A stretch of 55,465 nucleotides of DNA from a virus: IMG/VR virus record IMGVR_UViG_3300022827_000009, positions 1 through 55,465 of that record; one strand, written 5' to 3'. Below, piece after piece: positions 5,828-45,767 of the stretch; the stretch's first letter is position 1, and every line of letters begins with the position of its first letter. Made by a program: the position numbers and the translations under genes. Under the pieces are notes generated by a model. That model searched no databases and had not been told where the DNA came from. It saw only the letters and a program-made list of their open reading frames with translations.

Positions 5828-6091
5828 ATGGGAATCTTCGCAGAAGTATTTCGTAGAACCGTAGCTCTAATTATTCTCCGTGTAAGTGGAGTCTTTGCTG
5901 GAGGCTCTCTTGCTGGAGTAGAACTCTGGCAAGCAGGTGCAATGGCAGCATTTATCGGCCTCATGGACGTAGCAGAGAATCTATCTCGTGCGTATATGAC
6001 TGATGGCGTGCTTGACATGCAGGAGATCAACTCGGCTTTTGGCTCACAGTCGGCCGAGGATGCAGATCCGTATCTAGCAAAAAGAGACTAA
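5828..6091 (+). CDS. Small membrane protein, holin-like
   Basis: 87 residues. Residues 10-30 (TVALIILRVSGVFAGGSLAGV) and 33-46 are hydrophobic, and an amphipathic acidic C-terminus follows. Size and layout fit small actinophage holins or holin-like membrane proteins. No lysin is adjacent (the M23 lysin is at 36.9-38.3 kb), so the assignment is tentative. It ends just before a strong terminator and starts after AAGGGAG. Confidence 0.5.
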   Translation: MGIFAEVFRRTVALIILRVSGVFAGGSLAGVELWQAGAMAAFIGLMDVAENLSRAYMTDGVLDMQEINSAFGSQSAEDADPYLAKRD

Positions 6092-6107
6092 CAAATAAAA
6101 AAATAAC

Positions 6108-6148
6108 AGCTCCTACTGGACAAATGCTCCGGTAGGGGCTATTATTTT
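6108..6148 (+). terminator. Intrinsic terminator
   Basis: 13-bp stem from AGCTCCTACTGGA (6108-6120) and TCCGGTAGGGGCT (6128-6140) with two G-U pairs, followed by ATTATTTT. Confidence 0.85.
6140..6145 (+). promoter_or_regulatory. -10 TATTAT within the terminator tail
   Basis: TATTAT begins at the last base of the terminator stem and is followed by tttgtc and ATG at 6152. The terminator of one unit thus doubles as the promoter of the next. Confidence 0.5.
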
Positions 6149-6151
6149 GTC

Positions 6152-6391
6152 ATGGATACTTTTGAAATTTGGCTAGAACACGGAATTAAGATGGGCTGGT
6201 GCGGTCCTGCTATATGTGACACTCATGACGGGACCCCCATGTCAGAAACAGAAATGGAAGAATTTGAAGATGGTGGTGACCCCTGCCTCCACGTAATTCG
6301 TCTCTATGAAGATACCGATCAAAAGAAGTCCATTGAGGAAACCCACTCGCCTTCTGTCTGGCGGGCAACAAACCGTGGAATAGATGTATAG
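6152..6391 (+). CDS. Conserved small protein (ICxTHDGxP family)
   Basis: 79 residues. It shares with the minus-strand gene at 23135-23365 the order F-x-x-W-x-E-x-G, ICxTHDGxP, CxH, LY and a terminal SxWRAxxRG. They are diverged paralogues. The conserved Cys/His residues suggest a metal site. Function unknown. A leaderless promoter lies in front and a tRNA-like gene follows. Confidence 0.7.
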   Translation: MDTFEIWLEHGIKMGWCGPAICDTHDGTPMSETEMEEFEDGGDPCLHVIRLYEDTDQKKSIEETHSPSVWRATNRGIDV

Positions 6392-6404: not shown

Positions 6405-6480
6405 CCCTCTCTAACTCAATTGGCAGAGTGGTTGACCGTTTACGGTTAACTGGTTCGTGGTTCAAGTCCACGGAGAGGGA
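6405..6480 (+). tRNA. tRNA-like gene with enlarged anticodon arm
   Basis: Acceptor CCCTCTC/GAGAGGG with discriminator A, D-arm ACTC-AATTGGCA-GAGT, variable TGGTT, and T-arm CGTGG-TTCAAGT-CCACG are all canonical. The anticodon arm (6431-6450) is 20 nt instead of 17. It folds either as GTTGACC/GGTTAAC closing a 6-nt loop, or as a 5-bp stem with a 10-nt loop CCGTTTACGG. No triplet with U at position 33 is presented, so no isotype can be assigned; the body resembles tRNA-Asn. CCA is not encoded. A TAGTAT box (6394-6399) lies just upstream. Confidence 0.7.
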
Positions 6481-6505
6481 CGTCATCGATTTAAATAAAT
6501 TCGTG

Positions 6506-10044: not shown

Positions 10045-10608
10045 ATGGCATTAAAGGAACTAGTTCCCGGAGAGCTCTGGGAGTATGAGAACTTTATAAC
10101 TGATTCAGAGCTTGGGCTCTTGCTCGATAAGGCTAGGTTCGCCAGAGAAGAAGATTGGTTTGCCGAAGACTTACCTGACTATGATAAGCATCATGCTGGA
10201 AAAACTTTTGAGTTCCAAGATACTCCTGGGGGAAGCTACCTGTCAAAGGCAATTGACCTTAGAGTTGCTGCCCTGTTCAAAGACGTAGCATACATGAATG
10301 AAATAGGTAGTATATGCAGAGCTACATCCCATCTAGAACCTGTAGGGATGCACAGAGATAATGCTGACCAAGACATAGTCGGGGAACATAGAAACACTCA
10401 TGTGAAGTATGGAGTCCTTATGTACTTAAACGATGACTATATTGGGGGCGAGATATGCTATCCAGAGTTAGGAATAGAGTACAAACCTAAACCAGGTGTC
10501 CTGTTGATCCATCACGCTGGCAACTTACATGGTGTCAACCCAGTGACAGAAGGGGTCCGCTTCTCTATGACATCCTTTGTCTATGGCCTAGACGCCCTTA
10601 TTGTTTAA
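10045..10608 (+). CDS. 2OG-Fe(II) oxygenase, prolyl-4-hydroxylase type
   Basis: 187 residues. The double-stranded beta-helix carries H103-x-D105 (GMHRDN), H162 (NLHGVNPVTEG) and R172 for 2-oxoglutarate. GGEICYPELGI between the metal ligands is typical of P4H-like enzymes. It should hydroxylate a carbon using O2 and 2-oxoglutarate. The substrate is unknown. It converges on another oxygenase gene with a short 3' overlap (10588-10608). Confidence 0.85.
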   Translation: MALKELVPGELWEYENFITDSELGLLLDKARFAREEDWFAEDLPDYDKHHAGKTFEFQDTPGGSYLSKAIDLRVAALFKDVAYMNEIGSICRATSHLEPVGMHRDNADQDIVGEHRNTHVKYGVLMYLNDDYIGGEICYPELGIEYKPKPGVLLIHHAGNLHGVNPVTEGVRFSMTSFVYGLDALIV

Positions 10609-11151
10609 TGTCTCGTGGAAGACAATAATTACGTTGACGCGGACGCCCTTAGTCACATAGTCAACCCCGTGGATAGTGTCATGGCCAGTAAAGAGAACTA
10701 GAGTTCCGGCCTTGGGATGTAAGCTAATTTTTAAGTCTGGGAAGTGTAGTTCCCCACCTTCGTAATCGTCGGTGAGAAAAAGCGCGGCTATGTATGGTTT
10801 CTGATCTGCAGCGTCGCCGTTAGAGTCTGGCTCCCAGTCGGCATGACCTGCCAGCCAAGCCCCTTCGCGCATCATGTTCCCATAACATCTATGGAGAGTG
10901 AACTCTCCCTTGATCTCGTAATTGTCCCTAAAAACTGAGTGAGCATGCTTCACTGCAAGTTTTATCTTGCCTTCGGCATCCCAATCGTAGGTTATAGCAT
11001 TATCTTCTAAAACTTCGGGGCCGAACAGGCTGAAAGTGCTATACATCTCACGGTCGTCATCTTGCGGAGACAACTGCATAGCTGCCGCTGCTCGGCTGGC
11101 CTCCTCCTGTGTGAGAAAGTCTTCAAAGATGAGGTAGTCTTTCGAGATCAT
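10588..11151 (-). CDS. 2OG-Fe(II) oxygenase, prolyl-4-hydroxylase type
   Basis: 187 residues on the minus strand. The triad is H103-x-D105 (GHADWEP) and H161 (TIHGVDYVTKGV), with R171 as the 2-oxoglutarate anchor. GGELHFPDLKI lies between. Its start overlaps the stop of the next minus-strand oxygenase (11148), so the two form an operon. The paralogues share layout but little identity outside the core, so substrates may differ. Confidence 0.85.
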   Translation of the reverse strand: MISKDYLIFEDFLTQEEASRAAAAMQLSPQDDDREMYSTFSLFGPEVLEDNAITYDWDAEGKIKLAVKHAHSVFRDNYEIKGEFTLHRCYGNMMREGAWLAGHADWEPDSNGDAADQKPYIAALFLTDDYEGGELHFPDLKISLHPKAGTLVLFTGHDTIHGVDYVTKGVRVNVIIVFHETLNNKGV

Positions 11152-11699
11152 GTTGCTAAAGGGATGTGGTCGCGGAAAAAGAATATAAAGTTATAACGTT
11201 TCCCCGAAAGAACCTTACGAACTCCATGGAGATTGGCCTCGTTACCTCTAAACATTATCAAGTCGCCTTGCTCTAGCTTTATATCTATGTTGTGATGCTG
11301 GAAGTACAGTTCTCCACCTTCATAGTCGCTGTTTAGCATTAAAATACAAGAATAGTGCAGCTCCACCTCGGGTTTACCGTCGTAGTGGTCCCCGTCGTCG
11401 TCGTGAGCGTAATTTTCCGCGCCAGTGTCCATAATGTTCCCGTAAAGGCGCTTCATGCCAAAAGTGTACTTCATGTCGTAATTGTCCTGAAAAAACGCTT
11501 TAACCTTAGTAAGCATCAATCTCACTGGTTGTAGGAAAGGTAGCTCCTCATTCTCCAAGTCTGTTAGGGGGACTCTTTGTAGTCGATATCCCGGTCTGAA
11601 TTGGTCTTTCATCGCGTACTCTTCAATCCATTGTGAGTAAGTCTCGCACTGCGAGGGCGTGAGCGCGTTTTTAATGAGCTTGTATGGAAGGTCTGTCAT
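11148..11699 (-). CDS. 2OG-Fe(II) oxygenase
   Basis: 183 residues with H99-x-D101 (YAHDDDGD), GGELYFQHHNI, H158 (NLHGVRKVLSGKR) and R168. First gene of a two-gene minus-strand operon, with a leaderless promoter that faces the carbamoyltransferase promoter. All catalytic ligands are present. Substrate unknown. Confidence 0.83.
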   Translation of the reverse strand: MTDLPYKLIKNALTPSQCETYSQWIEEYAMKDQFRPGYRLQRVPLTDLENEELPFLQPVRLMLTKVKAFFQDNYDMKYTFGMKRLYGNIMDTGAENYAHDDDGDHYDGKPEVELHYSCILMLNSDYEGGELYFQHHNIDIKLEQGDLIMFRGNEANLHGVRKVLSGKRYNFIFFFRDHIPLAT

Positions 11700-11705
11700 A
11701 AGAAC

Positions 11706-11711
11706 ATTCTA
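11706..11711 (-). promoter_or_regulatory. -10 TAGAAT (minus), leaderless
   Basis: On the minus strand TAGAAT is six bases (gttctt) from the ATG at 11699. Confidence 0.6.
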
Positions 11712-11723
11712 TCATTATTAGAT

Positions 11724-11729
11724 TAGACT
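11724..11729 (+). promoter_or_regulatory. -10 TAGACT, leaderless
   Basis: TAGACT, attagg, ATG at 11736. It is divergent from 11706-11711, with 12 bp between the boxes. Confidence 0.6.
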
Positions 11730-11735
11730 ATTAGG

Positions 11736-13169
11736 ATGAAGATCATAGGTATCAATGAGACTACACACGATGCTGCAATGGCCGTCATTGAGGACGGTGA
11801 GATCCTATTCGCTGGACACGCCGAGCGCTACAGTAAGCAGAAGAACGATTGGTATAACAACGACCTTATTCTGATGGACGCCCTTAAGCACGGATCACCA
11901 GACAAGGTCGCCTACTATGAGAAGTCTTGGCTAAAGAAAATTAGGATTGCACGGCACGGTGGGTTCGGGGGTGGACGTCCCTACTACAAAGACACTCTTC
12001 TCGGTGGCCTACCAACCATTAACTTCACCCATCACTATTCGCATGCTGCTGCTGGATACTTTACCTCTAGTTTTGTGGACGCCGCTATTGTTGTGCTAGA
12101 CGCAATTGGAGAGTTTGAGACGTCTACAGTTTGGAAGGGGGAAGGTGAGAAGATAACGCAGGTGAGAAGGGACAAGTACCCCTTCAGCTTTGGACTCTTC
12201 TACTCTGCCTTTACGCAGCTAGTTGGGTTGAAGCCAAACGAGGAAGAGTACATCATGATGGGCATGGCTGCCTATGGTGACAAAGATAGATATTACGAGA
12301 GAGTACGCAGTTACTTCCCTATCTATTACGCCCAAGAGGGTAACTTTCATAGGGGTATCCAAGACTGGGGAGAAGAAGTAGAGGGCCAAGCAAGATTTGA
12401 CCTAGCAGCTGCAGTCCAACAGGTTTTTGAGGACCGACTGGTTGAGTACATAACCATGGTTAAACAAACTACTGGCAAGAAAAATCTAGTCTTTATGGGC
12501 GGCTGTGCCCTAAACAGTAAGGCCAATACCCTTCTTCACGGCATCTTCAAGAATGTCTGGATCATGCCTAACCCTGGAGATGCGGGGTCAGCACTTGGCG
12601 CTGCAGCCGCCCTCTATGGAAAACACCTGAACTGGACTGGACCATACTTGGGTACCAATATCCCTGGGGAGTATCCAGTAAAGAAAATCGTAGACGCCCT
12701 TATTAACGACAAAGTAGCGCCAGTAGCTTCAGGTAGGGCTGAGTATGGGCCAAGGGCGTTGGGCAATAGGAGTATTTTGGCCGACCCTAGGGATCCAGAC
12801 ATAAAGAATAAAGTAAATCTAATAAAGAAACGTGAGCTATTTAGACCATTCGCTCCAATTGTTATGGAGGAGTATGCAACCAGGTGGTTCGATATGGACT
12901 ACTACTCTCCTTATATGCAGTACACACCAAGATGCCTTAAGCCTTGGTTGATCCCTAGCGTGGTGCACGCAGACGGTACTTCTAGGGTTCAGACAGTAAA
13001 TAAGCGTCAACACCCGGGGCTTTATGAAGTACTAGAGAATTGGCATGCCTACAGCGGTGTGCCAGTTCTATTGAATACAAGTCTCAATATAAAAGGACAG
13101 CCTATGCTTAATGATCAAAATGATGTACTAGAATGGGAAGCACACTACAACACTAAAATCATCAGCTAG
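11736..13169 (+). CDS. NodU/CmcH/TobZ-family O-carbamoyltransferase
   Basis: 477 residues. The N-terminal Kae1-like part starts KIIGINETTHDAAMAVIEDG and holds the HHYSHAAAGY metal/active-site motif, then GLKPNEEEYIMMGMAAYG. Later FMGGCALNSKAN, EYGPRALGNRSILADPR and a terminal VPVLLNTSLNIKGQP complete the family signature. These enzymes transfer carbamoyl from carbamoyl phosphate, via carbamoyl-AMP, to a hydroxyl on a sugar, antibiotic or modified base. It is somewhat shorter than the usual 550-600 residues. The flanking hydroxylases could supply the hydroxyl. Carbamoyltransferases of this family have been tied to phage 5-carbamoyloxymethylcytosine, but the substrate here is unknown. Confidence 0.88.
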   Translation: MKIIGINETTHDAAMAVIEDGEILFAGHAERYSKQKNDWYNNDLILMDALKHGSPDKVAYYEKSWLKKIRIARHGGFGGGRPYYKDTLLGGLPTINFTHHYSHAAAGYFTSSFVDAAIVVLDAIGEFETSTVWKGEGEKITQVRRDKYPFSFGLFYSAFTQLVGLKPNEEEYIMMGMAAYGDKDRYYERVRSYFPIYYAQEGNFHRGIQDWGEEVEGQARFDLAAAVQQVFEDRLVEYITMVKQTTGKKNLVFMGGCALNSKANTLLHGIFKNVWIMPNPGDAGSALGAAAALYGKHLNWTGPYLGTNIPGEYPVKKIVDALINDKVAPVASGRAEYGPRALGNRSILADPRDPDIKNKVNLIKKRELFRPFAPIVMEEYATRWFDMDYYSPYMQYTPRCLKPWLIPSVVHADGTSRVQTVNKRQHPGLYEVLENWHAYSGVPVLLNTSLNIKGQPMLNDQNDVLEWEAHYNTKIIS

Positions 13170-13179
13170 AGGACTAACA

Positions 13180-13878
13180 ATGACAGAACTTACATTTAGA
13201 TCAGACATGACCGTGGAGCTAGTCCAGTCAATGGGCGACGATGCTTCGGTAGTAAAAGCTGCTCGTGTCTCTACTGGCGGTAGCACTACTACTCCTGAGA
13301 AGGATGCTGGTTTAATTAACTACCTTATGCGTGATCGCCACGGCACCCCTTTTGAGCACAACGCTTTTACGTTCTATGTAGAGGCACCTATCTTTGTGTT
13401 CCGCGAGTTTATGCGTCACAGGGTTGCGTCCTACAACGAAGAGTCAGGCCGATACAAAGAGCTTGCTCCAGTGTTTTACATTCCTAGCGAAGATCGTAAG
13501 CTAATTCAAGTTGGTAAGCCAGGTGCTTACACTTTTGAAGAGGGAACTTATGACCAGAAAAAGATTGTTCCGGCAGACATCAAGATGGCAGCTAAAGAGT
13601 CATACGCTGCTTATCAGCGGATGCTAGAAAAAGGTGTTGCCCGAGAGGTCGCAAGGAGTGTTCTACCAGTTGGACTCTACTCTTCTATGTTCGTTACGAT
13701 GAACGCCCGTACACTGATGAACTTCCTATCACTTCGAACTATGCGTGAAGGAACAATGTTTCCTTCTTTTCCGCAGAGGGAGATAGAGATGTGTGCCGAA
13801 AAGATGGAAGACTTCTTTGCAGAGGTCATGCCAGTTACTTACGCAACGTTCAATAAGAATGGTCGAGTAGCTCCATAA
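13180..13878 (+). CDS. thyX: Flavin-dependent thymidylate synthase
   Basis: 232 residues. The ThyX motif RHRVASYNEESGRY (RHR-x7-S) begins near residue 78, and the HGTPFEHNAFTF region precedes it. RTLMNFLSLR in the C-terminal half is typical. It methylates dUMP to dTMP using methylenetetrahydrofolate, FAD and NADPH. It starts 10 bases after the carbamoyltransferase, with GAGGA as ribosome site, so the two are probably co-transcribed. ThyX-like proteins can also make modified pyrimidines, but nothing here deviates from normal ThyX. Confidence 0.95.
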   Translation: MTELTFRSDMTVELVQSMGDDASVVKAARVSTGGSTTTPEKDAGLINYLMRDRHGTPFEHNAFTFYVEAPIFVFREFMRHRVASYNEESGRYKELAPVFYIPSEDRKLIQVGKPGAYTFEEGTYDQKKIVPADIKMAAKESYAAYQRMLEKGVAREVARSVLPVGLYSSMFVTMNARTLMNFLSLRTMREGTMFPSFPQREIEMCAEKMEDFFAEVMPVTYATFNKNGRVAP

Positions 13879-13911
13879 GCAAGCACTATTATAGTCAACC
13901 TGCACAGCTAG

Positions 13912-13917
13912 TACACT
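13912..13917 (+). promoter_or_regulatory. -10 TACACT, leaderless
   Basis: TACACT with seven bases to ATG at 13925. Confidence 0.5.
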
Positions 13918-13924
13918 GATACCT

Positions 13925-14542
13925 ATGGATATTAAATTTATTGGCGAGACTCAGATTGCTATAGTAGATGACTTAGTTGACGTTACCGTCTGTGACGCTC
14001 TCTCTGAAATGTCTAAGTGGTGCAAAGCTCAAGGCTTAGTGTTCAGAGGTGAGCTAGACACTGATGACCACATAGTTGTAGAAGATGGTACGAACTCCCC
14101 TCCCCGCGAGGAGGATGACACCTTCTGGCTAGACAAGAATACTCCCATATCGGAGCTCCCGCAGTACTACCAAGACCTTGCTCGAATAGTGTCCGACCGC
14201 TCAACTGAAGCTGTGGATGCCTACTTCGCTCTTATCGGGCAGACACTTCCTTACAGGGAGATTAACTTAGACGTTATACACATATTCTTTGCAGGCGAAG
14301 AGCTCGAATGGCACATGGACTGCTTTGACTACTCGCTAGTCTTCTACCTAAATGACCGGACAGAGTGGGAGGGTGGAGACCTCTACTATCCCGAATTGGA
14401 CATAAAGCTGTCACCAGTTAAGAATAGACTGGTAATCCAGCCCTCGCGGATTCCTCACTTGGTCACTAAGATCACTGGGGGCCTTAGGACTACAATGACA
14501 ACTTTCATCCCCATCGGGGACCCACCGTACCCATCCGACTAA
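13925..14542 (+). CDS. 2OG-Fe(II) oxygenase
   Basis: 205 residues. H130-x-D132 (EWHMDCFDYS), GGDLYYPELDIKLSP, H178 (IPHLVTKITGG) and R188 form the metal and cosubstrate site. The N-terminal 110 residues are helical and family-specific. It leads a plus-strand unit with a 30-residue peptide and a catalytically degraded relative. Confidence 0.83.
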   Translation: MDIKFIGETQIAIVDDLVDVTVCDALSEMSKWCKAQGLVFRGELDTDDHIVVEDGTNSPPREEDDTFWLDKNTPISELPQYYQDLARIVSDRSTEAVDAYFALIGQTLPYREINLDVIHIFFAGEELEWHMDCFDYSLVFYLNDRTEWEGGDLYYPELDIKLSPVKNRLVIQPSRIPHLVTKITGGLRTTMTTFIPIGDPPYPSD

Positions 14543-14555
14543 AGGCGTAATTATA

Positions 14556-14648
14556 ATGATGATTCTGTACTATATGGAACGTGCCTACCGCAAGATTAAG
14601 TACATCCTCTTTCCGAAGAAGAGGCCAAAGAAGGACTTTATCTACTAA
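14556..14648 (+). CDS. 30-residue basic peptide
   Basis: ATG at 14556 encodes 30 residues (MMILYYMERAYRKIKYILFP then KKRPKKDFIY). Strongly basic with aromatic and hydrophobic residues, possibly a membrane-surface helix. Its stop overlaps the next start (TAATG), which argues for translation. No homologue recognised. Confidence 0.45.
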   Translation: MMILYYMERAYRKIKYILFPKKRPKKDFIY

Positions 14649-15271
14649 TGTATGCTGGCGTAACTACGATAACTCGAGAGACTAGGCATCTACCTATACC
14701 CTTTGCGACACTTAACGATGTTCTGACGCTTGTCGAAGTCGACCTCTTGCGTGATTTTGCTCTAAACTTTTCGTCTGACGCTACTGGGGATGACTTCAGT
14801 GTGAAGCACGAACTACCTAACCGGCCTACCGAATGGGACCCTCACGGGTTGGTGATGAAGCTGCAGGATCAGTTTAGAGACTACATACAAAGAAACTTCT
14901 TCATACTGGGGTCTGTGGAGCCTAGATACTTTACAATCCTCAGGACCGACGAGCTGCAATCATATGTGGACAAGTATAGCTACTTTGAAAATGGTGGATA
15001 CGTCTTATATACTGCGATCATACCGCTCTCACACCAGGGTACTGACTATACAGGTGGAGATCTTACTTATATGCAAACCGGCGAGGGCGGATCTGGGAAA
15101 CCAGGGCAGATGCTAGTCCACCGAAACGAGACACTGAACTCTTGGGCGTTAAATAAGGTGGAGTCCGGAATCCGAATAGACTTAGTCCTTGTGCAACACG
15201 AAATAGAGAACAGAACAAGCTACACCGAGTTTGAGATGGAACAAACTATAGACGATGGAATGTCTTACTAA
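14648..15271 (+). CDS. 2OG-oxygenase-fold protein lacking metal histidines
   Basis: 207 residues. It aligns by layout with the gene at 13925: YTGGDLTYMQTGEGGSGKPG matches GGDLYYPE...P and GIRIDL keeps the cosubstrate Arg (R176). The proximal HxD is replaced by Y106-x-D108 and the distal His by a NSWAL segment. With both histidines gone, Fe(II) binding is unlikely, so a pseudoenzyme or partner subunit is the best guess. The frame is intact, so the loss looks maintained rather than decay. Confidence 0.65.
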   Translation: MYAGVTTITRETRHLPIPFATLNDVLTLVEVDLLRDFALNFSSDATGDDFSVKHELPNRPTEWDPHGLVMKLQDQFRDYIQRNFFILGSVEPRYFTILRTDELQSYVDKYSYFENGGYVLYTAIIPLSHQGTDYTGGDLTYMQTGEGGSGKPGQMLVHRNETLNSWALNKVESGIRIDLVLVQHEIENRTSYTEFEMEQTIDDGMSY

Positions 15272-15876
15272 ATATAGCTCGGAGCATTAGCTGCGTCGTA
15301 CTGAAAACCTGTCATGCTGTATCTAACTCCGTCAGTAACTGGCGGTACTCCGTGAAGAATATCACTGGAATGCACAACTATCATGCCGGACTCTGCTTCT
15401 AGCTCTAGGTCGAGATCCGGATAGTAGAGACTGCCTCCTGAGTAACTACTGCCACTATTTAAATAGCAGATTACCCCATATTTTATCCCTGTATCTCCTT
15501 CTTCTCCCTCGAAGGAGTCGGTATGATCTGCTAGATAATCACCGTTGGTCCACCGGTGAACTATGTTCAGTGGCATTCCGATATACGCTCCGGCGAGCCC
15601 CCCTAGGGCAGATATGCACGCAAGTATGGCAGTGTCTGCAAACTCATTGAGTTCGTTGTAGTGCCGCACGTTCGCGTCCCCTTTAAGTGTATTGAGGTAG
15701 ACATTTCGTGCATCCCATCTAGTTACGGGGGTGCCGTCACTCGTTAGAGTCCCTATCTTGGTCAGCCCACTGTCGATTAAGAGCTCCGTATAGCCGGTAA
15801 GGGCTTTGCATAGCCCATCAGGTATTGCATTCCGGGCTATAGCAATATCAGCACCAGGCACTTTGATTATCTCCAT
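15268..15876 (-). CDS. 2OG-Fe(II) oxygenase
   Basis: 202 residues on the minus strand. H118-x-D120 (ADHTDSF), GGSLYYPDLDLELEAESG, H175 (ILHGVPPVTDG) and R185 are all present. It converges with the degraded paralogue at 15271 (4-bp 3' overlap). An own leaderless promoter lies at 15883-15888. Confidence 0.85.
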   Translation of the reverse strand: MEIIKVPGADIAIARNAIPDGLCKALTGYTELLIDSGLTKIGTLTSDGTPVTRWDARNVYLNTLKGDANVRHYNELNEFADTAILACISALGGLAGAYIGMPLNIVHRWTNGDYLADHTDSFEGEEGDTGIKYGVICYLNSGSSYSGGSLYYPDLDLELEAESGMIVVHSSDILHGVPPVTDGVRYSMTGFQYDAANAPSYI

Positions 15877-15955: not shown

Positions 15956-16663
15956 TTGAGCGAGCTGGACGCCCCTATTACTAAAGCAATTCTGTACGCA
16001 CGCGTATCTACAATGATACAAGTAGAGGATGGTGTGTCGCTGGATGTGCAAGAGAGAACCCTTGTGCAGGCTAGGGAGATGTACGGATTCTCCGAAGGTG
16101 AGTTGGTCCGCGAAGAGGGCCGCTCCGGTAAGAACGTTACCGGCAGGCCCAAACTAATAGACGCCCTTAAGCGTCTAGACCGTGGCGAGGCAGACGCCCT
16201 TATTGTGACCAGGATAGATAGACTGGCCAGGAGTACAAAGGACTTCTTGGACATAGTGGATAGGGCCAACAAGAATGAGTGGAGGCTGATCCTCCTTGAT
16301 CTAAACCTAGACACCTCTACATACCAAGGAAGATTTGTCGTCACAATAATGAGCGCCTTGGCCGAGATGGAACGTGGAATTATTGCAGAGCGCTCAAAGG
16401 ATATCCATAAAGATCGCAGAGATAGAGGTATCGTCTGGGGCGAAGATATGGGACCGAAGATGTTTATCCCACCGCAGGTAAGGGAGCAAGTTTTGACTCA
16501 TAGGGGCAGGGGAATGTCTTATCAGGCAATAGCCGACACGCTGAATATTCAGGGGTTAGTTGCTTCTAGGGGTGGAACTTGGTATGGTTCAAGTGTGAAG
16601 AATGTAATAGACGCACTTACGAAAAATGAAAAGGGACTCAATGGCGAGAAAAAAGAAGCTTAG
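15956..16663 (+). CDS. Serine recombinase (resolvase/invertase type)
   Basis: 235 residues. The catalytic motif ILYARVST places nucleophile S18 after R16. RIDRLARSTKDFLDI (residues about 83-97) and SALAEMERGIIAERSK are the remaining resolvase-domain signatures. The C-terminus has a short HTH (MSYQAIADTLN...GGTWYGSSVKNVI). It is too short for a large serine integrase but longer than a minimal resolvase. TTG at 15956 is the only start that keeps the full N-terminus. It could invert or resolve phage DNA. No paired recombination sites were recognised in the window. Confidence 0.85.
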   Translation: MSELDAPITKAILYARVSTMIQVEDGVSLDVQERTLVQAREMYGFSEGELVREEGRSGKNVTGRPKLIDALKRLDRGEADALIVTRIDRLARSTKDFLDIVDRANKNEWRLILLDLNLDTSTYQGRFVVTIMSALAEMERGIIAERSKDIHKDRRDRGIVWGEDMGPKMFIPPQVREQVLTHRGRGMSYQAIADTLNIQGLVASRGGTWYGSSVKNVIDALTKNEKGLNGEKKEA

Positions 16664-22146: not shown

Positions 22147-22608
22147 ATGAAATTCCTACCTGCATACGCTGCATATCAAGACTCTAAACTATTTCTTGAC
22201 TACTTAGAGGCTAATGGGTCAACGAAAGTTAACGAAGCATCGTCTGAGGCCCCGGCAGAGTCACCAGTTAACGAAAGACTTGGTGGCTTCGCTAAGGGTA
22301 TTAGGGAATTCCATGGTAACCGCGCTCACAGTTACTCTATAGACAAGCATCAATATAAGCACACGTTGAGCCTTGACAGCTTTGAATACATCTCGGCTGG
22401 GGAGGACCTAGTAATACCCCCTACCACAGCATGGGTGGGGATTATCTATCTAGACACCCTGGGAGAAGAGTACCAAGGACTGCCTGACATTTTTGGAGAC
22501 CTAGAGATCTCGCCGGGGGCTGGCGATGTAATGGTGTTTCCCGCAGACGTAGAGAAGTTCTTTGGCGGAGCTGCTAGAAAGTTTGCCATGTACTGGAAGG
22601 CAGACTAG
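22147..22608 (+). CDS. Degenerate 2OG-oxygenase-like protein
   Basis: 153 residues. The C-terminal half (WVGIIYLDTLGEEYQG...GDLEISPGAGDVMVFPA) has the strand pattern of the 2OG oxygenase core. No HxD is recognisable, and the distal His position reads DVEKFFGG. It is therefore likely inactive as an oxygenase. It is first in a tightly overlapped unit with genes at 22608 and shares a leaderless promoter. Confidence 0.5.
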   Translation: MKFLPAYAAYQDSKLFLDYLEANGSTKVNEASSEAPAESPVNERLGGFAKGIREFHGNRAHSYSIDKHQYKHTLSLDSFEYISAGEDLVIPPTTAWVGIIYLDTLGEEYQGLPDIFGDLEISPGAGDVMVFPADVEKFFGGAARKFAMYWKAD

Positions 22609-23138
22609 TGCACTTTCCTCCAGTGCTAATTGAAGATGCCTTCACCAACGAAGAGCAGCAAGCTCTTGCAGACGTAGTTCACGTCGAGTACGTTCCTTTC
22701 AGGGACGAGAGAAACAATAGGGACTTAGCGAAATTCAAAGCACTAAAAGAGTTCAGCGAAAAGCTAGAACCCCTGGCAAGAAAGATCTTTAACGACCCTA
22801 CGCTCAAAAGTACCTACAGAGTGTACATCGACTACAACGATGAGGACTCGACTCTTAATATGCATAAAGACCAAAACGCTTGTGTGTACACCATAGACTA
22901 CTGCGTCTCTGCGGAAACTGATTGGCCACTTATAGTCGAAGGTGAAGAGTACAGCTTTAAGCCTGGACAGGCGCTAGCATTTATGGGAGGCGAAGACCTC
23001 CACGGCAGAAACCCCAAAGGCGCGGGCCGCGTCGAGAACATAATGTTCCACTTCTGCCCCGAGGATCATTGGTGGTTCACGGAAGGACCTGACCACATAG
23101 AAGTTTTGAAGGAAGCTGGAAAGCTAACTATTTACTAG
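22608..23138 (+). CDS. 2OG-Fe(II) oxygenase
   Basis: 176 residues from GTG 22608, overlapping the previous stop (TAGTG). H86-x-D88 (NMHKDQNA), the strand WPLIVEGEEYSFKPGQALAF, and H132 (EDLHGR) make up the triad. It differs from the P4H-like set and is close in layout to the gene at 23380. Possible substrates include amino acids, peptides or small molecules. Confidence 0.75.
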   Translation: MHFPPVLIEDAFTNEEQQALADVVHVEYVPFRDERNNRDLAKFKALKEFSEKLEPLARKIFNDPTLKSTYRVYIDYNDEDSTLNMHKDQNACVYTIDYCVSAETDWPLIVEGEEYSFKPGQALAFMGGEDLHGRNPKGAGRVENIMFHFCPEDHWWFTEGPDHIEVLKEAGKLTIY

Positions 23139-23365
23139 TAGAGTCCCCGCGTGTGAGCTCTCCAGTAAGAGGGTGGAAACTTTGCCATCATTGTCTCTAC
23201 CTCTTCAGTGTTCTGATATAGGAGTAGGTAGTGATTGCAAGCATCGACGTCCTCAGGCATTCCATCATGGGTACGACATATTGGTGAAGAGTTCCAGCTC
23301 CTAGACAAGCCGTATTCAATCCACTCATCGAATGACATCTCTTCTCTACCGGGTTCTGCTTCCAT
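23135..23365 (-). CDS. Conserved small protein, paralogue of 6152-6391
   Basis: 76 residues with F-x-x-W-x-E-x-G, PICRTHDGMP, ACNHYLLLY and a terminal SYWRAHTRG. This matches the protein at 6152. Function unknown. It is divergently transcribed from 23380 by a shared palindromic promoter and overlaps the 3' end of the oxygenase at 22608 by 4 bases. Confidence 0.7.
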   Translation of the reverse strand: MEAEPGREEMSFDEWIEYGLSRSWNSSPICRTHDGMPEDVDACNHYLLLYQNTEEVETMMAKFPPSYWRAHTRGLY

Positions 23366-23367
23366 GT

Positions 23368-23377
23368 TAGAATTCTA
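23368..23377. promoter_or_regulatory. Palindromic bidirectional -10 TAGAATTCTA
   Basis: The 10-bp palindrome reads TAGAAT on both strands. Six bases separate it from GTG 23380 on plus and from ATG 23365 on minus. Both genes therefore appear leaderless from one symmetric element. Confidence 0.7.
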
Positions 23378-23379
23378 TC

Positions 23380-23907
23380 GTGTATAAGCCTGAGCTAATT
23401 AAGAACCTCTTCAGTCAAGAAGACATTGATAGATTGAGGGCAGAGATCCTAGATGGATCTGAGCTGAAGCGTGACGACTACGATGAAGTCTGTAATCGGT
23501 CAGTCATAGAGCACCATCTCTTAGACTCTTACTTTAGCCGTAAAGCTCTAGATGATGTAAGAAGAATCTACGAGGATGAATCCATAGAGCCCACCATATG
23601 CATCTACTCTAAATATGATAGCCCCGACTCTTTTCTGCCTGAACACGTGGACAGGAACGCCTGCGAGTTCAACATCTCTTATGTAGTATCTCAGCAGGAG
23701 CCTTGGCCTATAATCATAAACGGCACTAAGTACTATCTAGAAGTGGGAGACGCCATTACTTATCATGGCACCAACTCTCGACACAGTAGGGGAGAGCTTC
23801 AAGAAACTAGCAATACTGAAGTAGAGATGTTAATATTCCACTACGTCTCCGGCTCCCATTGGTTCTTTAACCACTGCGACGACTTCTACCCGGACAGTGA
23901 GCTGTAA
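23380..23907 (+). CDS. 2OG-Fe(II) oxygenase
   Basis: 175 residues from GTG 23380. H89-x-D91 (EHVDRNACEF) and H135 (TNSRHSRGEL) form the metal site. WPIIINGTKYYLEVGDAITYHG connects them. Close relative of 22608. It is coupled by TAATG to a fused Rossmann protein whose C-terminus is a decayed copy of the same domain. Confidence 0.75.
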   Translation: MYKPELIKNLFSQEDIDRLRAEILDGSELKRDDYDEVCNRSVIEHHLLDSYFSRKALDDVRRIYEDESIEPTICIYSKYDSPDSFLPEHVDRNACEFNISYVVSQQEPWPIIINGTKYYLEVGDAITYHGTNSRHSRGELQETSNTEVEMLIFHYVSGSHWFFNHCDDFYPDSEL

Positions 23908-39579: not shown

Positions 39580-39771
39580 ATGACTAGCTGGTATTTTGCA
39601 TTCTTAATGATAATAGTTGTCTGGGCGCTTGGGGTGATTGGGTTTTCAATCTGGATATTCCGGAAGGTGATCCCGGACGTAAAGAGCCTATTTCTGGAAA
39701 GCGACCTGACTGAAGAAGAGAAGCAGATCCTAATGATTAAAGCTATGTTCCCGCCGAAGTTCAACCGTTAA
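39580..39771 (+). CDS. Small single-span membrane protein
   Basis: 63 residues with a transmembrane helix at residues 4-27 (WYFAFLMIIVVWALGVIGFS) and a charged C-terminal helix (LTEEEKQILMIKAMF). Unrecognised. It resembles the protein at 39333 in layout only. Confidence 0.6.
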   Translation: MTSWYFAFLMIIVVWALGVIGFSIWIFRKVIPDVKSLFLESDLTEEEKQILMIKAMFPPKFNR

Positions 39772-39782
39772 CCGCTAAAACT

Positions 39783-40034
39783 TTAATCTTCGTAAGAGTC
39801 TTGCTCTACTTCTTCTTCACCCCAGGCGTAAACCCTGACGGTTTGATATAAATCTATAACTTCTCCAACCAACTTCTCTGTGGCTATCAGAAGGTCAGCC
39901 TTTTGTTCTGAGTCAGTGGGCTGGTCAATCTCTAAATGAATCTCTTGGACCGCGTACGCGCAGAGGTCTAACCGTCTTAGCGCTGTGGCTAGGGCGGTTT
40001 TAGTGTTGCCTCCGGTTGTGTTTGGTAGTTCCAT
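39783..40034 (-). CDS. Small helical acidic protein
   Basis: 83 residues on the minus strand, mostly helical, with an acidic tail. A leaderless promoter (TACACT, six bases) supports ATG 40034. Function unknown. Confidence 0.55.
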   Translation of the reverse strand: MELPNTTGGNTKTALATALRRLDLCAYAVQEIHLEIDQPTDSEQKADLLIATEKLVGEVIDLYQTVRVYAWGEEEVEQDSYED

Positions 40035-40040
40035 GTGACA

Positions 40041-40046
40041 AGTGTA
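40041..40046 (-). promoter_or_regulatory. -10 TACACT (minus), leaderless
   Basis: On minus TACACT, tgtcac, ATG at 40034. Confidence 0.6.
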
Positions 40047-40540
40047 TATGTTTTTTAGAGCGGGGATTGGTTAGTGGGGGCAATCGACTTAATGACTCCA
40101 ATAGTCCAAAAGCGACTATTTGTCCCTGGGCAGTGAGAAGTTGAGAAATAGACCGTCCTATTATTATCAGTAAACGAAGAAGGTAGAGAGGGAGTTTTTG
40201 ATAATAGATGGAGGGAAAGGTAGGGAAGGTAAAAGGGGGTGTTTTTTAGTTTCTTGATAATAGAATTTTGTTTTATTATCAAAGAACAGAGTCTTGTTGA
40301 ATGTTTTTTATGATAATAGCACTTAATACTTACTATGTTAAGTGTTATGACTACTAAAAATAGTACTACGCGTGACGCATGTGTGTATGGGTGGGGTGAA
40401 TTTTTAGTACACATAAGACTTAACTCTGTAAGTGTATAGTATGTTAGTGTAGAGAAGGATTTATTTCCTGTTTGCTTGGGAGAAGATAGTGGCAAAAGTA
40501 AATGGTTGTATTGTGTATTGTATTTCAGTAGAGAAAGTGC
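40047..40540. other. AT-rich non-coding region with TGATAATA iterons
   Basis: About 490 bp without a credible gene. The word TGATAATA occurs at 40199, 40255 and 40311, and inverted (TATTATCA) at 40162 and 40274. The pair at 40254-40282 forms TTGATAATA/TATTATCAA. CACTTAA (40320-40326) pairs with TTAAGTG (40338-40344). One strand is G-rich between the iterons. Replication origin, partition site or a regulatory hub are candidates. Confidence 0.5.
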
Positions 40541-40546
40541 TAGATT
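40541..40546 (+). promoter_or_regulatory. -10 TAGATT, leaderless
   Basis: TAGATT, aatttt, ATG at 40553. Confidence 0.6.
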
Positions 40547-40552
40547 AATTTT

Positions 40553-41014
40553 ATGAACAAAGAGACAGAGACCTGGGAGTTACCTCCAGTGCCAAGATCC
40601 TATGTGGATAAATTACGTAGTGAGGGTAACGTGGTGCTGGCACAAGATTACGAGGATCTATACAAGCATCACCAGCAAGAGCGTGAGCAGTTTATTGAGG
40701 ATCACCTTGGTGGAGATGTTACGACCTTCCACGAGGCTAGCAAGCAGGTTAGGGATAGGTTCCACGATATAGCTTCTGACATTGTTGATCTTCAAAGAAT
40801 TTCTAATAAAGAAACTAACTATGGGAGAACACCAAAGCAAGAAGCGTTAGATAACTTAGATTTTATGAACGACCACAAGTTGGTCTACAGGCAACAAAAA
40901 GATTTACTGGCTGGCTGGTATCAGAATTTAGCTACTGAATTGTTTTACTATGACGGAGTCATTTGGGACAAGATCCCTGATGAGAAAATTAATGAATTGG
41001 AGTACTTGGGATGA
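40553..41014 (+). CDS. Hypothetical protein ending in a WY-type motif
   Basis: 153 residues, helical, with a C-terminal segment GWYQN...YYDGVIWDKI...NELEYLG. The same order (GWYQDPDG...YDGDKW...LEYLG) ends the next protein, so the two share a small domain, perhaps related to DUF2510-type GWYxDPxG repeats. Function unknown. First gene of a four-gene plus-strand unit. Confidence 0.6.
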   Translation: MNKETETWELPPVPRSYVDKLRSEGNVVLAQDYEDLYKHHQQEREQFIEDHLGGDVTTFHEASKQVRDRFHDIASDIVDLQRISNKETNYGRTPKQEALDNLDFMNDHKLVYRQQKDLLAGWYQNLATELFYYDGVIWDKIPDEKINELEYLG

Positions 41015-41502
41015 TAGACGAAACGAAACTACAGTCAGTACCAGGAGGGGACGAGCGTGTTCTCTATGACGACTCTGGTAATACTTACTACAAAGATCAC
41101 AAGAAGGGCATCATCCCTTGGGCAGAATTAGTTGAGGATAATCTAGAACACTCTGTAGGAAGTTTCCTTGATTTAGACCTTGAGGATGTTGGAAAGATTA
41201 TTTACGTTCGGGTTACTGAAACTGGGTATCAAAAAATCATTGGCTCTGAACGTTCAGGTAAGGCAGTTAGTGGCCAAGTTTGGGAAGACCTGGCTCCAGG
41301 ATTATCAAGGAAGAGAGCAGCTGATTTAGCTGGCGGAGGATCTCTAGCATCAACTGAGAATCTCGAAGTTCAAGAACCAGAAGCAATAGAGATTGGCTGG
41401 TATCAAGATCCTGATGGAAACTTGTATCAGTACGATGGCGACAAATGGGTTGACGGATATGTTTCCGTTGAGCTTAAAAAACAGTTAGAATATCTAGGTT
41501 AA
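41011..41502 (+). CDS. Hypothetical protein with GWYQDPDG domain
   Basis: 163 residues. The C-terminus GWYQDPDGNLYQYDGDKW resembles actinobacterial DUF2510 motifs, and the protein ends LEYLG like its neighbour. It overlaps the preceding stop by 4 bases. Function unknown. Confidence 0.6.
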   Translation: MIDETKLQSVPGGDERVLYDDSGNTYYKDHKKGIIPWAELVEDNLEHSVGSFLDLDLEDVGKIIYVRVTETGYQKIIGSERSGKAVSGQVWEDLAPGLSRKRAADLAGGGSLASTENLEVQEPEAIEIGWYQDPDGNLYQYDGDKWVDGYVSVELKKQLEYLG

Positions 41503-41868: not shown

Positions 41869-42360
41869 ATGTTTGAGAGTGATTTTGGCATAAGCATGGA
41901 AGAGGCGAACATGATTAACGAGGCCTATGCAATAGACCCTCGTAGTAATGATCGACGAATTTGTATCTGCGGTCACTCTGTCTCAAGGCATAGTAAAGTA
42001 GCTAATACAAATGGAATCTATGCTTGTCGACCTGGCAGACTAGATTGCCCTTGTGCATCTATGAAGCCAGTTATTATTGTCCCCAACACTAGGTACTTCA
42101 TGCGGAAAAGTCTAGGCTCCGGAGCAAAGCACGCTTTGGTTCGAGGAGTAGCTGCTGCAATTGAAGCCTCTTCACCAGAAGAGTTTGAGCAACGACGTGA
42201 GTGGTTGGTCCCGGCTGAGTGTGAAGTCTGTCAAACCCCTGCGAAATATTACCCCGTTAGGATTACTGCTCAAGGTAAACCGATAACGGATGCAGCGACA
42301 GAAATAGATCAAGGACTTTACGCATTCATGTGTGAGTTCCACAGAAACGCAACATACTAG
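41869..42360 (+). CDS. Zinc-binding hypothetical protein
   Basis: 163 residues. RRICICGHSVSRHSK, ACRPGRLDCPCASMK and ECEVCQTP...MCEFH give three Cys/His clusters, so at least one or two zinc sites are likely. It starts directly after the previous stop. Similar CxCGH-RH proteins occur in actinophages. Function unknown. Confidence 0.6.
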   Translation: MFESDFGISMEEANMINEAYAIDPRSNDRRICICGHSVSRHSKVANTNGIYACRPGRLDCPCASMKPVIIVPNTRYFMRKSLGSGAKHALVRGVAAAIEASSPEEFEQRREWLVPAECEVCQTPAKYYPVRITAQGKPITDAATEIDQGLYAFMCEFHRNATY

Positions 42361-43385: not shown

Positions 43386-44339
43386 ATGGTAGAATCTAAC
43401 GGCGAGCTGGAATACACAATAGACGACCCAGTCTCAATCCTTGCCGACTTAACCGAGCTTGGAATCGAAGAGATGGACAGGGGTGTCTGCGAAGATACGT
43501 TTGCTAACCGTAAGATCCTCCGGAAATCAAAACTCATCTGGGAGAACCTCTACTCAAACGACGGTAAGATAACCGGCCTGTTAAAAGTACGTTCAGCAGA
43601 ATCAACTCGCGAGCGCCGGATTCAATCCCTCGCTGAAAAGCGTCCAATACTTGTTACTCCCTCAGACAACAATTCAGATTACCTAACCGGCCTGGATCTA
43701 ATAGCTGAGGATGCCTCCGACTACCTCGCCCCACCGTGGGTAATAGGAGCCACCAGAAAATGGCTCAAGGAAGTAGAAGCAGGTGGACCGCCCACTGAAA
43801 AACGTCAACCGGTTCCAATGCCACACCGATGCAAAGTTATTAAGTTCGACGGGATCCGCTGTATGCTTTGGGGATCGGGACGTCTAGTAGATGACGGCAT
43901 GTGCAGAGTTCACCTTCGCACTTTAACTTCGAAGACTTCTGATGACATCGAACGGGCCCGCGATAAGTTAACCCAGGCTGCACCGTATGCTGTTGACAAA
44001 CTTGAAGAACTTATGTTGACCGCTGAATCTGAACCGGTCCAACTTAAAGCTGCAACCGAGATCCTCGACCGAGCTGGGGTTAGGGGCGGCGTGGAAATCG
44101 AAACCACCCTTAACATTGATCTGCGTCCAGCGGCTGATGTTATCCAAGAACGGTTGGCCCGTTTAACAAGCGGCGCGCTATCCGAATCGCTGCGTCTAGC
44201 AAACCAGGGAACGGACATCATTGATGCAGAAGTTGTTGAAGAGCCAAAGAAAGAAGAAGAAGAAGACCGGCCCGCAACTATTGACGAAGAATCAGAAGAG
44301 CGGCCTGCAGCAACTATTAACGCGACGGAAGAGAAGTAA
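43386..44339 (+). CDS. Terminase small subunit-like protein
   Basis: 317 residues. The segment ARDKLTQAAPYAVDKLEELM then LTAESEPVQLKAATEILDRAG (about 195-235) is typical of actinophage terminase small subunits, and an acidic tail (EEPKKEEEEDRP) follows. An N-terminal zinc-like Cys/His cluster (PHRCKVIKFDGIRCML... CRVHLRTL) is an addition. AAGGAC is the ribosome site. A large terminase subunit does not follow in the window, so the call is tentative. Confidence 0.6.
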   Translation: MVESNGELEYTIDDPVSILADLTELGIEEMDRGVCEDTFANRKILRKSKLIWENLYSNDGKITGLLKVRSAESTRERRIQSLAEKRPILVTPSDNNSDYLTGLDLIAEDASDYLAPPWVIGATRKWLKEVEAGGPPTEKRQPVPMPHRCKVIKFDGIRCMLWGSGRLVDDGMCRVHLRTLTSKTSDDIERARDKLTQAAPYAVDKLEELMLTAESEPVQLKAATEILDRAGVRGGVEIETTLNIDLRPAADVIQERLARLTSGALSESLRLANQGTDIIDAEVVEEPKKEEEEDRPATIDEESEERPAATINATEEK

Positions 44340-44342
44340 CGG

Positions 44343-44636
44343 ATGACCCTGGGTAGAGACTTCACTGAAATACTCAAGACGGCGCGCGATCATTACGAGA
44401 GCATAAAAGCTGACCTCCCGAATGCTAAAGACCGCGTCGAACATATTCGCTTAAGCTCCTTAGCTCAAGAAGCACAGAACTTGGTAACCGACCTTGCTAT
44501 CTTTGAGCTAGGGTTGGTTTATTCACACACCAATAACACCGATGCTTATATTGAAGAGCGCATTGCAGTTAACGTAGAAACGGGTGAGATCCTGGACCTT
44601 CCAGAGTTCAGGTCTCCATACAATCCACGTGCTTAA
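44343..44636 (+). CDS. Hypothetical protein
   Basis: 97 residues, helical, ending EERIAVNVETGEILDLPEFR. It lies 3 bases after the terminase-like gene and overlaps the next by 8 bases. Unrecognised; perhaps a packaging or structural helper by position. Confidence 0.55.
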   Translation: MTLGRDFTEILKTARDHYESIKADLPNAKDRVEHIRLSSLAQEAQNLVTDLAIFELGLVYSHTNNTDAYIEERIAVNVETGEILDLPEFRSPYNPRA

Positions 44637-45303
44637 AACAGAACTTGCACTCGAGGACATCAAGGCACTAGGATTTGATGTTGAAGAACTAGCGCCTCAA
44701 TTGTTTGTGATCAAGAACTTTATAACAGCAGCTGAGCTGGAATCTTTGTATGAAGAAGTAACTTCTTATTCGGAAGAAGACTGGGATCAGTTTTATTTAG
44801 CAGAGATGCGCATCCACGCTCTTGATAAGTTTGGCCGGGATGATTTAGAGAATATGCGCAGAGAAGGCCTGATTAAAATCACAAAAGGTTTTTACAACAA
44901 AGTAGCTCGGGTTCGAAACGATGAGCTGCGTTTCCGACTGGGTACCCGGCTCGAGTCTATTTACGAAATCTTAGATGAACCTCTGGAGGTCTCCGGCTTT
45001 GTGATCTTTCAACGTTTATATGAAGCTACTGAGCTGAAGTATCATTACGACCAACAGTCAGACAAGCTTGTTGCACACGCAGGCGTGCTTTATTTAAATG
45101 ATGATTACACCAAAGGTGAACTCTTCTTTCCGGGGTTGGGTATTAATGTAACTCCTGAGCCAGGATCTTTGGTGATCTTTCCAGGAACTAAAGATTTCGA
45201 GCATGGTGTTCGCCGCCTAGGTGCAGGTCCGGTTAGGTACGTCCTTCCCGCGTTCATTAAAAGTAAACACCCAGATGGATCCATGGCCGGTTGGGCAGAG
45301 TGA
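44629..45303 (+). CDS. 2OG-Fe(II) oxygenase
   Basis: 224 residues from GTG 44629, which gives a short overlap. H139-x-D141 (KYHYDQQSD), KGELFFPGLGINVTPEPGS, H192 (EHGVRRL) and R203 form the metal and cosubstrate site. It is far from the other oxygenases and sits in the packaging/virion-type block, so its target could be a virion or surface component. It overlaps the next gene by 4 bases. Confidence 0.8.
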   Translation: MLKTELALEDIKALGFDVEELAPQLFVIKNFITAAELESLYEEVTSYSEEDWDQFYLAEMRIHALDKFGRDDLENMRREGLIKITKGFYNKVARVRNDELRFRLGTRLESIYEILDEPLEVSGFVIFQRLYEATELKYHYDQQSDKLVAHAGVLYLNDDYTKGELFFPGLGINVTPEPGSLVIFPGTKDFEHGVRRLGAGPVRYVLPAFIKSKHPDGSMAGWAE

Positions 45304-45767
45304 GTGCTTCGTTAAAAGATGCGATCGCTAGTCAGGAAGTACTCTTCTTGCCGAACTTTTCATCAGCGCTCCCTGGGTGGCCGGTCTTCATAGATCAAAT
45401 CAATACTGCAAAGTTGCGCGGCGACGCAGATCAAAGAAGAAGTTATTACTGGCGAGCGCCGGTGCGGCCAGGTGATCCCCTTCATGCAAAGTTAGCCATC
45501 CTCCAGCAGGCACTTACTGCTGAACTTAATATGGACGTTCGTCCCATCAATGCATATGTCAACATTGCTGTTGGAGAAGAGATCTGGCCAGCGCACGGGG
45601 ATCCGGAAGATTCATTGTTCGTTCTTTGCGAGGGTTCAGTTACTTGGTTCCTGGATGACGCGGAGTACACTTTGCACCAAGGCGATGCGATCTTCTTCCC
45701 GTCGATGACCAACCATGAGGTTAGAGCTCTCACCCCTCGCGCTGCATTCATTTTTGCTGTAGGATAG
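45300..45767 (+). CDS. Cupin/JmjC-like 2OG oxygenase
   Basis: 155 residues from GTG 45300 (GTGA overlap). H99-x-D101 (PAHGDPEDS), H139 (TNHEV) and R147 (PRAAFIF), with YTLHQGDAIFFPS between, resemble a cupin-type 2OG oxygenase. It belongs with the preceding gene as a pair. Substrate unknown. A plain metal cupin is an alternative. Confidence 0.65.
   Translation: MSASLKDAIASQEVLFLPNFSSALPGWPVFIDQINTAKLRGDADQRRSYYWRAPVRPGDPLHAKLAILQQALTAELNMDVRPINAYVNIAVGEEIWPAHGDPEDSLFVLCEGSVTWFLDDAEYTLHQGDAIFFPSMTNHEVRALTPRAAFIFAVG

What the first reader, a model, noticed from the sequence alone, without database searches (positions are those of the whole stretch)
40047..40540. Non-coding region with five TGATAATA words
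Three direct and two inverted copies lie within 157 bp, with G-rich stretches and further inverted repeats, in the longest gene-free stretch of the window. This resembles an iteron origin, a partition site or a multi-operator control region.
Basis: seen in the sequence. Interest (0 to 1): 0.52.

Follow-up and report, generated by a model that had tools for sequence, protein, structure and literature searches.

The report
Paired operator array in actinophage genomes
The five TGATAATA words are one member of a conserved set of paired protein-binding sites that many related phages carry at this position and usually again in front of a DNA helicase gene, so the region is probably a control switch for the phage and perhaps also where its DNA replication starts.

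Summary
Five exact TGATAATA words (three direct, two inverted) lie at 40162-40318 in the window's longest gene-free gap (518 bp); no shuffle of the gap comes near this.
The window is a fragment of a tailed phage related to uncultured actinobacterial phages. Relatives carry, at the same place, two tandem modules, each an inverted pair of one 8-bp word with word starts about 37 bp apart, followed by a long imperfect DNA dyad. The word changes between lineages (TGATAATA, TGCTAATA, TGATAGTA, ACCTAGTA, TCTTAGTA, TCTAAGTA...), but the copies within one genome agree.
A further inverted pair, usually with the same genome-specific word, lies tens of kilobases away between the RuvC-like and helicase genes; its right arm coincides with the probable extended -10 of the helicase promoter. 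Word matching between the two places exceeds chance.
Words that change together at two distant sites point to a trans-acting DNA-binding protein, not an RNA. Best reading: a multi-operator control region of a phage regulator that also controls the helicase gene. An origin with initiator sites remains possible but unproven. The binding protein is unidentified.

The parts
39783..40034 (-). 83-aa gene left of the gap; conserved small protein, predicted two-helix hairpin
   Evidence: homologues in 54 loci; AlphaFold2 model, mean pLDDT 84.8
40035..40552 (.). intergenic control region, longest gap in the window
   Evidence: 146-aa ORF on it has no relatives
40162..40169 (-). module 1 left arm, TGATAATA inverted
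40199..40206 (+). module 1 right arm, TGATAATA
   Evidence: word offset 37 as in relatives
40255..40262 (+). extra direct word, 56 bp from each neighbour; probably the right arm of a third module whose left arm (expected near 40218) is missing
   Evidence: the 'lost module' is inference
40274..40281 (-). module 2 left arm, TGATAATA inverted
40311..40318 (+). module 2 right arm, TGATAATA
40321..40440 (.). long imperfect dyad (arms 40321-40361 and 40400-40440) directly after module 2; loop holds TACGCGTG at 40367-40374
   Evidence: a dyad at the same place in all 27 relatives measured
40442..40450 (+). possible extended -10 promoter element TGTTAGTGT, same place as TGTTAGAGT in L014
   Evidence: read by eye; consensus resemblance only
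40553..41502 (+). two-gene cassette (153 and 163 aa) next to the gap; in relative L014 it lies on the other side of the gap, 87% DNA identity
41869..42360 (+). 163-aa Cys/His-rich, probably zinc-binding protein; the gene most constantly linked to this region and one candidate for the word-binding protein
   Evidence: homologues in 78 loci; linked in 46 of 54 loci found with the 83-aa gene and present in 5 of 5 whole records

Best explanation
The five words are recognition sites of one phage-coded DNA-binding protein. They are arranged in modules: two copies of an 8-bp word facing each other with word starts about 37 bp apart, repeated about 56 bp further on. SHOWN: the array, its conserved spacing at this locus in relatives, the lineage-specific change of the word, its reuse in front of the helicase gene, and a DNA-level dyad beside it. 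INFERRED: a dimer (or two cooperating dimers) holds both arms of a module. At the helicase gene it covers the -35 to -10 region and represses, or first represses and later releases, the promoter. At the window locus the tandem modules let it bind cooperatively and govern transcription starting at or beside the dyad into the rightward gene block, so one protein couples this region to the replication-gene cluster. The same protein may also start replication here; that is left as the main rival.
For: Conserved array: a scan for four matching words (inverted-direct-inverted-direct) scored 43 or more in 59 of 143 loci, three of them evident false hits in GC-rich sequence (L170, L171, L095), against 1 of 143 shuffled loci. 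In 28 non-redundant loci including the window, 32 of 56 modules have the same core offset of 40 and 48 of 56 have 39-41. Same word within a genome, different between genomes: word position 3 agrees in 0.93 of same-orientation arms of the two modules, 0.86 within a module and 0.44 between loci; position 6 in 0.89, 0.93 and 0.48. Second site: 26 of 49 distinct records examined held the RuvC-like gene; in 20 of these 26 the gap to the helicase gene holds an inverted pair of 7/8 or better overlapping a TARTA core. Trans-coupling: in 14 records with both sites, words of the two sites match 7.35 of 8 on average against 5.98 (sd 0.24) when records are permuted, 0 of 20,000 permutations as high; 8 collapsed lineages, 2 of 20,000. 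Without choosing a word: in DSL-LC01 one word alone, TCTAAGTA, recurs as a perfect inverted pair at two loci, and these are the two homologous gaps (18060, 89011); G011 and G002 give TGATAATA in the same two gaps; 0 of 50 shuffled genomes gave any. Rescan: L043-L045, first missed, carry TGATAATA-type modules further upstream, as the helicase site of the record of L043 (G049) implied. Promoter overlap: the right arm TGNTARTAT reads as an extended -10 with TTGNNN 17 bp upstream in L214, L226 and L228 (by eye); in five Microbacterium or Arthrobacter phages the same gap keeps such an element without a left arm (by eye).
Against: No binding protein is identified; linkage of the 163-aa protein is only circumstantial, and its model has no PDB match (best E 2.2). 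Half-sites 37 bp apart are wide for an ordinary dimer. The window modules lack a clear -35 (purine-rich spacers), so they are not obviously promoters. Two of five whole records (G001, G005) gave no recurring word under the strict rule. In G006 and G007 only the left helicase arm carries the lineage word. A first, looser permutation test was weak: 12.24 against 10.85, sd 0.85, highest permutation 13.52; several of its regions held no array because genes are inserted between it and the anchor gene. The record of this window does not include the helicase gene, so the second site was not seen in this very phage.
Confidence: 0.65

Rival explanations
1. Replication origin: the words are initiator-binding sites, the long dyad is the melting or hairpin-forming part, and the initiator also regulates the helicase operon, as initiators of iteron plasmids do with their own gene.
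For: Tandem identical sites, adjacent AT-rich dyad kept at the DNA level while its arms change sequence, arrays of two modules found only here in the whole records searched, and a second site within the polA-ruvC-helicase cluster.
Against: Cumulative GC skew has no extremum at the locus in four of five records; in G011 the maximum (123 kb) is about 4 kb from the array, but it is also the end of the contig. No initiator or replication gene adjoins the gap. The replication genes carry only one module, at a promoter.
Confidence: 0.3
2. The words are merely extended -10 promoter elements in divergent pairs; the conserved TARTA core is a sigma-factor requirement and no other protein is involved.
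For: TGNTARTAT resembles an extended -10; the right arm sits at the expected helicase promoter, and such an element stands there also in Microbacterium phages.
Against: Bases that sigma does not read (position 3) match between arms, modules and distant loci; ACCTAGTA, TCTTAGTA and TCTAAGTA lack the TG; the left arm in the RuvC-helicase gap would only transcribe antisense.
Confidence: 0.12
3. Structured RNA (tandem hairpins plus a long hairpin) made from the gap.
For: The strands fold better than shuffles: window z -3.9 and -4.8, L014 -0.9 and -3.0; words pair within modules.
Against: Both strands fold, as any DNA dyad does. In 28 long dyads mismatches are 38 G-T, 34 A-C and 126 other, close to random 33:33:132, so neither strand shows a wobble preference. 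Pairing stops at 8 bp. Same-orientation arms of different modules agree about as well as the two arms that would pair. The word recurs tens of kilobases away. No Rfam family.
Confidence: 0.04
4. Packaging (pac/cos) or partition site, because the gap lies a few kilobases upstream of a small-terminase-like gene (2.8 kb in the window, 1.6 kb in L014).
For: Position relative to the gene at 43386-44339 (weak PHROG small-terminase match).
Against: That gene is 57-80% identical across relatives whose words differ, and the word recurs at the helicase gene. No partition gene among the ten neighbours scanned.
Confidence: 0.05

Closest known systems
Bipartite operators of temperate phages (lambda OL/OR type; recalled, no call)
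   Same: One regulator, clusters of like operators at two separate loci, one overlapping a promoter
   Different: Half-sites about 37 bp apart rather than one compact palindrome; the two loci are tens of kilobases apart; long dyad beside one cluster; regulator unknown
Iteron origins with an inverted-repeat operator at the rep gene (RepE/RepA type; recalled, with search listings only: PMC13028717, PMC5043065)
   Same: Repeated initiator-type words at one locus and an inverted pair at a replication-gene promoter
   Different: Inverted pairs at both places rather than direct iterons at the origin; no rep gene nearby; no origin activity shown
Vibrio cholerae RctB 12-mers and 39-mers (start of abstract seen in listing, PMC5395669)
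   Same: One replication protein reading sites at more than one place
   Different: Here the same word in the same pair geometry at both places; no known initiator
Cluster A mycobacteriophage stoperators (start of abstract seen in listing, PMC9283540)
   Same: Actinophage repressor sites; that their sequence differs between phage groups is recalled
   Different: Stoperators are asymmetric sites spread over the genome, bound by a monomer; here paired arms at two loci only

Membership tests
Multi-operator control region | Several copies of one recognition word in an intergenic region, beyond chance | tested here: met
   5 copies in 157 bp, 0 of 2000 shuffles with 4 or more
Multi-operator control region | Words recognised by a trans-acting factor | tested here: inconclusive
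   indirect support only: matched words at two distant loci, 0 of 20,000 permutations; no protein tested
Multi-operator control region | Sites overlap promoters | tested here: inconclusive
   likely at the helicase gene; at the window locus only consensus-like elements
Iteron replication origin | Tandem direct iterons | tested here: not met
   units are inverted pairs in tandem
Iteron replication origin | GC-skew extremum at the site | tested here: not met
   not at the site in 4 of 5 records; in G011 within 4 kb but at the contig end; skew may only follow gene strand
Iteron replication origin | Initiator gene adjacent | tested here: inconclusive
   neighbours are unknown proteins
Iteron replication origin | Replication starts there | not testable with these tools
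   needs read depth or nascent-strand mapping
Stoperators | Many sites spread through the genome | tested here: not met
   exact pairs only at two loci
Structured RNA | Wobble-tolerant pairing on one strand | tested here: not met
   38 G-T against 34 A-C mismatches
Serine-recombinase site | Cognate recombinase present wherever the site is | tested here: not met
   the window's recombinase (15956-16663) has no relative in G011, G005 or G002, which carry the sites
Partition site | ParA/ParB-type genes adjacent | tested here: inconclusive
   none among ten neighbours scanned against PHROGs; rest of the genome not scanned

The most novel reading that the evidence does not exclude
A widespread group of large actinobacterial phages uses an undescribed origin and switch: a protein that reads facing 8-bp words about 37 bp apart binds tandem modules next to a cruciform-forming dyad to start replication, and the same protein times the replicative helicase through an identical module at its promoter. 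Protein and word evolve together, giving each lineage a private address.
Probability: 0.22. Interest if true: 0.68.

Novelty: new variant of a known kind. Interest (0 to 1): 0.52.

Why it matters
It turns a loose sequence oddity into a defined regulatory element shared by many uncultured phages, with a built-in test: the words at two loci must match within a genome. It shows where to look for a master regulator, and possibly the replication origin, of a phage group with no experimental genetics known to me. The lineage-specific words are a natural record of protein-DNA co-evolution.

Tried and rejected
RNA reading: folding of both strands, Rfam and a wobble test led away from it. The word as a viral-contig pattern (TTGATAATAG twice) gave 24 loci that were not followed up. 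Search with the 153-aa neighbour found no relative in viral contigs. Near-identity search of phage records found nothing. GC skew for an origin: no clear support. A first trans-coupling permutation was weak because several regions held no array; it was replaced on records with both sites. For that, 18 records were looked at; 5 without a qualifying pair at one site (G001, G006, G007, G009, G037) were left out; DSL-LC01 was added. The word of DSL-LC01 was noticed by eye; one search repeats the search without choosing a word. Structure of the 163-aa protein gave no fold match; the 83-aa protein is a helical hairpin, so neither proves a DNA binder. Serine recombinase and MerR-like gene set aside as the general binder: each lacks a detected relative in some genomes that carry the sites. 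Papers: passages of PMC10611076 and PMC10202952, the rest only search listings; three searches for a description of such a region found none, in that open-licence library only.

Full report
What is in the window. Five exact TGATAATA words lie at 40162(-), 40199(+), 40255(+), 40274(-) and 40311(+); the only other copy in 55,465 bases, at 39608, is inside an ORF. In 2000 dinucleotide shuffles of the gap no 8-mer reached four copies within 160 bp. The gap 40035-40552 is the longest in the window, 518 bp against 227 for the next, after setting aside a 146-aa ORF that has no relative in any fetched locus. The spacing is regular: 37 bp from inverted to direct word twice, 56 and 56 bp between direct words, 112 bp between inverted ones. 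A 41-nt imperfect inverted repeat follows at once, 40321-40361/40400-40440.

What the window is. It is a virus record of IMG/VR, probably a fragment, since its leftmost ORF runs off the end. No phage record is near in DNA. The terminase-small-like gene at 43386 has relatives in nine viral-contig loci and, by protein, in DSL-LC01, a phage genome assembled from a lake metagenome and predicted to infect Actinomycetia, and in Microbacterium and Arthrobacter phages. A host among Actinobacteria is therefore likely, by inference.

The same gap in relatives. L014 (129.6-kb contig) has the gap between the homologue of the 83-aa gene and other rightward genes. It carries TATTACCA at 6066, TGATAATA at 6103, TATTACCA at 6123 and TGATAATA at 6160, with the same 37-bp step, and a long dyad after them. 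L010, L011 and L013 have the same architecture with a different word, GATAGTATC/GATACTAGC. Two protein-profile searches then gave 78 loci (163-aa Cys/His-rich family) and 54 loci (83-aa family). A four-word scan over 102 upstream regions scored 44 or more in 41; the highest shuffled score was 42. A scan of whole loci, which also finds arrays set further from the anchor gene, scored 43 or more in 59 of 143 loci, three of them evident false hits, against 1 of 143 shuffled loci. So more than half of the loci show no such array under this rule; some of them hold a single module or a partial one (for example L065, L164). The window itself does not score in that scan, because an extra direct word stretches its two modules 112 bp apart; I read that word as the remnant of a third module (inference).

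Anatomy. In 28 non-redundant loci including the window the two TARTA cores of a module lie 39-41 bp apart in 48 of 56 modules, and the module period is mostly 55-59 bp. Pairing is strong over 8 bp and stops there. Word positions 3 and 6 vary between loci (agreement 0.44 and 0.48) but agree within modules (0.86, 0.93) and across modules in the same orientation (0.93, 0.89). Arms that would not pair with each other thus agree about as well as those that would, which suits recognition by a protein better than pairing of an RNA stem. The dyad after the array was measured in 28 loci. Its best stem exceeds the best of five shuffles in every one, though only by 2-4 points in L131, L123, L106, L090 and L140. 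Its mismatches are 38 G-T, 34 A-C and 126 other against 919 Watson-Crick pairs, close to random proportions, so it appears to be kept as DNA. A loop motif like TACGCGYGTA is common but not universal (for example L123 and L169).

The second site. A pattern search of 14 records matched in five (G002, G003, G005, G011, G014), and each of the five has one pair away from the array. In all five it lies between a RuvC-like gene and a helicase gene, after DNA polymerase I; these names follow the annotation of the same gene order in DSL-LC01, and 'SNF2-type', where used, is my reading of the helicase sequence. With a RuvC profile, 26 of 49 distinct records held the gene. In 20 of the 26 an inverted pair of 7/8 or better overlaps a TARTA core in the gap; in the other six (L215, L216, L217, L234, L235, L236) arms can be seen by eye but fall below that cut. 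The right arm reads TGNTARTAT, an extended -10, with TTGNNN 17 bp before TAATAT in L214, L226 and L228 (by eye). In the five Microbacterium and Arthrobacter phages looked at, an extended -10-like element follows the RuvC gene and no left arm is seen; in one of them (L240) a small gene then intervenes before the helicase.

Words match between the two sites. For 14 records with both sites the mean identity is 7.35 of 8 against 5.98 (sd 0.24) for permuted records, none of 20,000 as high; with eight lineages, one record each, 2 of 20,000 are as high, and without DSL-LC01 8 of 20,000. Five of the 18 records listed were left out for want of a qualifying pair. In G006 and G007 only the left helicase arm has the lineage word. 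An unbiased scan of five whole records asked which 8-mers recur as perfect inverted pairs at two or more loci more than 1 kb apart. G011, G002 and DSL-LC01 each gave one word, and in each the two loci are these two gaps (75, 86 and 71 kb apart along the record); G005 and G001 gave none; 50 shuffled genomes gave none. An earlier, looser test was not decisive and is reported as such.

Interpretation. Two loci tens of kilobases apart that change their word together need something that reads both. The simplest is a phage DNA-binding protein; I do not know which. The 163-aa Cys/His-rich protein is the most constant neighbour (46 of 54 loci; all five whole records), yet its predicted fold has no PDB match. 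Two WhiB-like proteins, named from their sequence by eye, are also conserved in five records. The site at the helicase promoter suits a repressor or a timed regulator. The array at the window locus heads a rightward gene block that in DSL-LC01 runs for about 83 kb, which suits a control switch. It could also be an origin, but the skew gives no clear sign: extrema lie elsewhere in four of five records, and in G011 the maximum is near the array only because both are near the contig end.

Verdict. A real, conserved, DNA-level multi-site control element, shared with a wide group of relatives, whose words behave as addresses for a trans-acting protein. Function as operator cluster is preferred; origin function is open. 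Confidence 0.65 for the operator reading as stated.

Noticed in passing
6405-6481 (+): ARAGORN calls a tRNA-like gene with a four-base anticodon (ttta), type not assigned.
   Followed up: no
40553-41502 and L014:4066-5019: A two-gene cassette, 87% identical in DNA, lies right of the gap in the window and left of it in L014 while the flanking order is otherwise kept: a local move.
   Followed up: partly
10045-15876, 22147-23907, 44584-45767: Several ORFs look by eye like 2-oxoglutarate/Fe(II) oxygenases, an unusual number for one phage (no family search made).
   Followed up: no
15956-16663 (+): Serine recombinase (Pfam Resolvase) shared with L014's genome and DSL-LC01 but not found in G011, G005 or G002.
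   Followed up: partly
L143, L064, L142, L140 (gap, right of the dyad): A palindrome of the type ACTTGACAAAnnnnTTTGTCAAGT lies between the dyad and the rightward gene in several relatives; possibly another operator.
   Followed up: no
41869-42360: Widespread Cys/His-rich protein family (ICVCGHP..RH ... CDRC ... LLC..CR) without Pfam or PDB fold relatives; confident model, mean pLDDT 88.
   Followed up: partly
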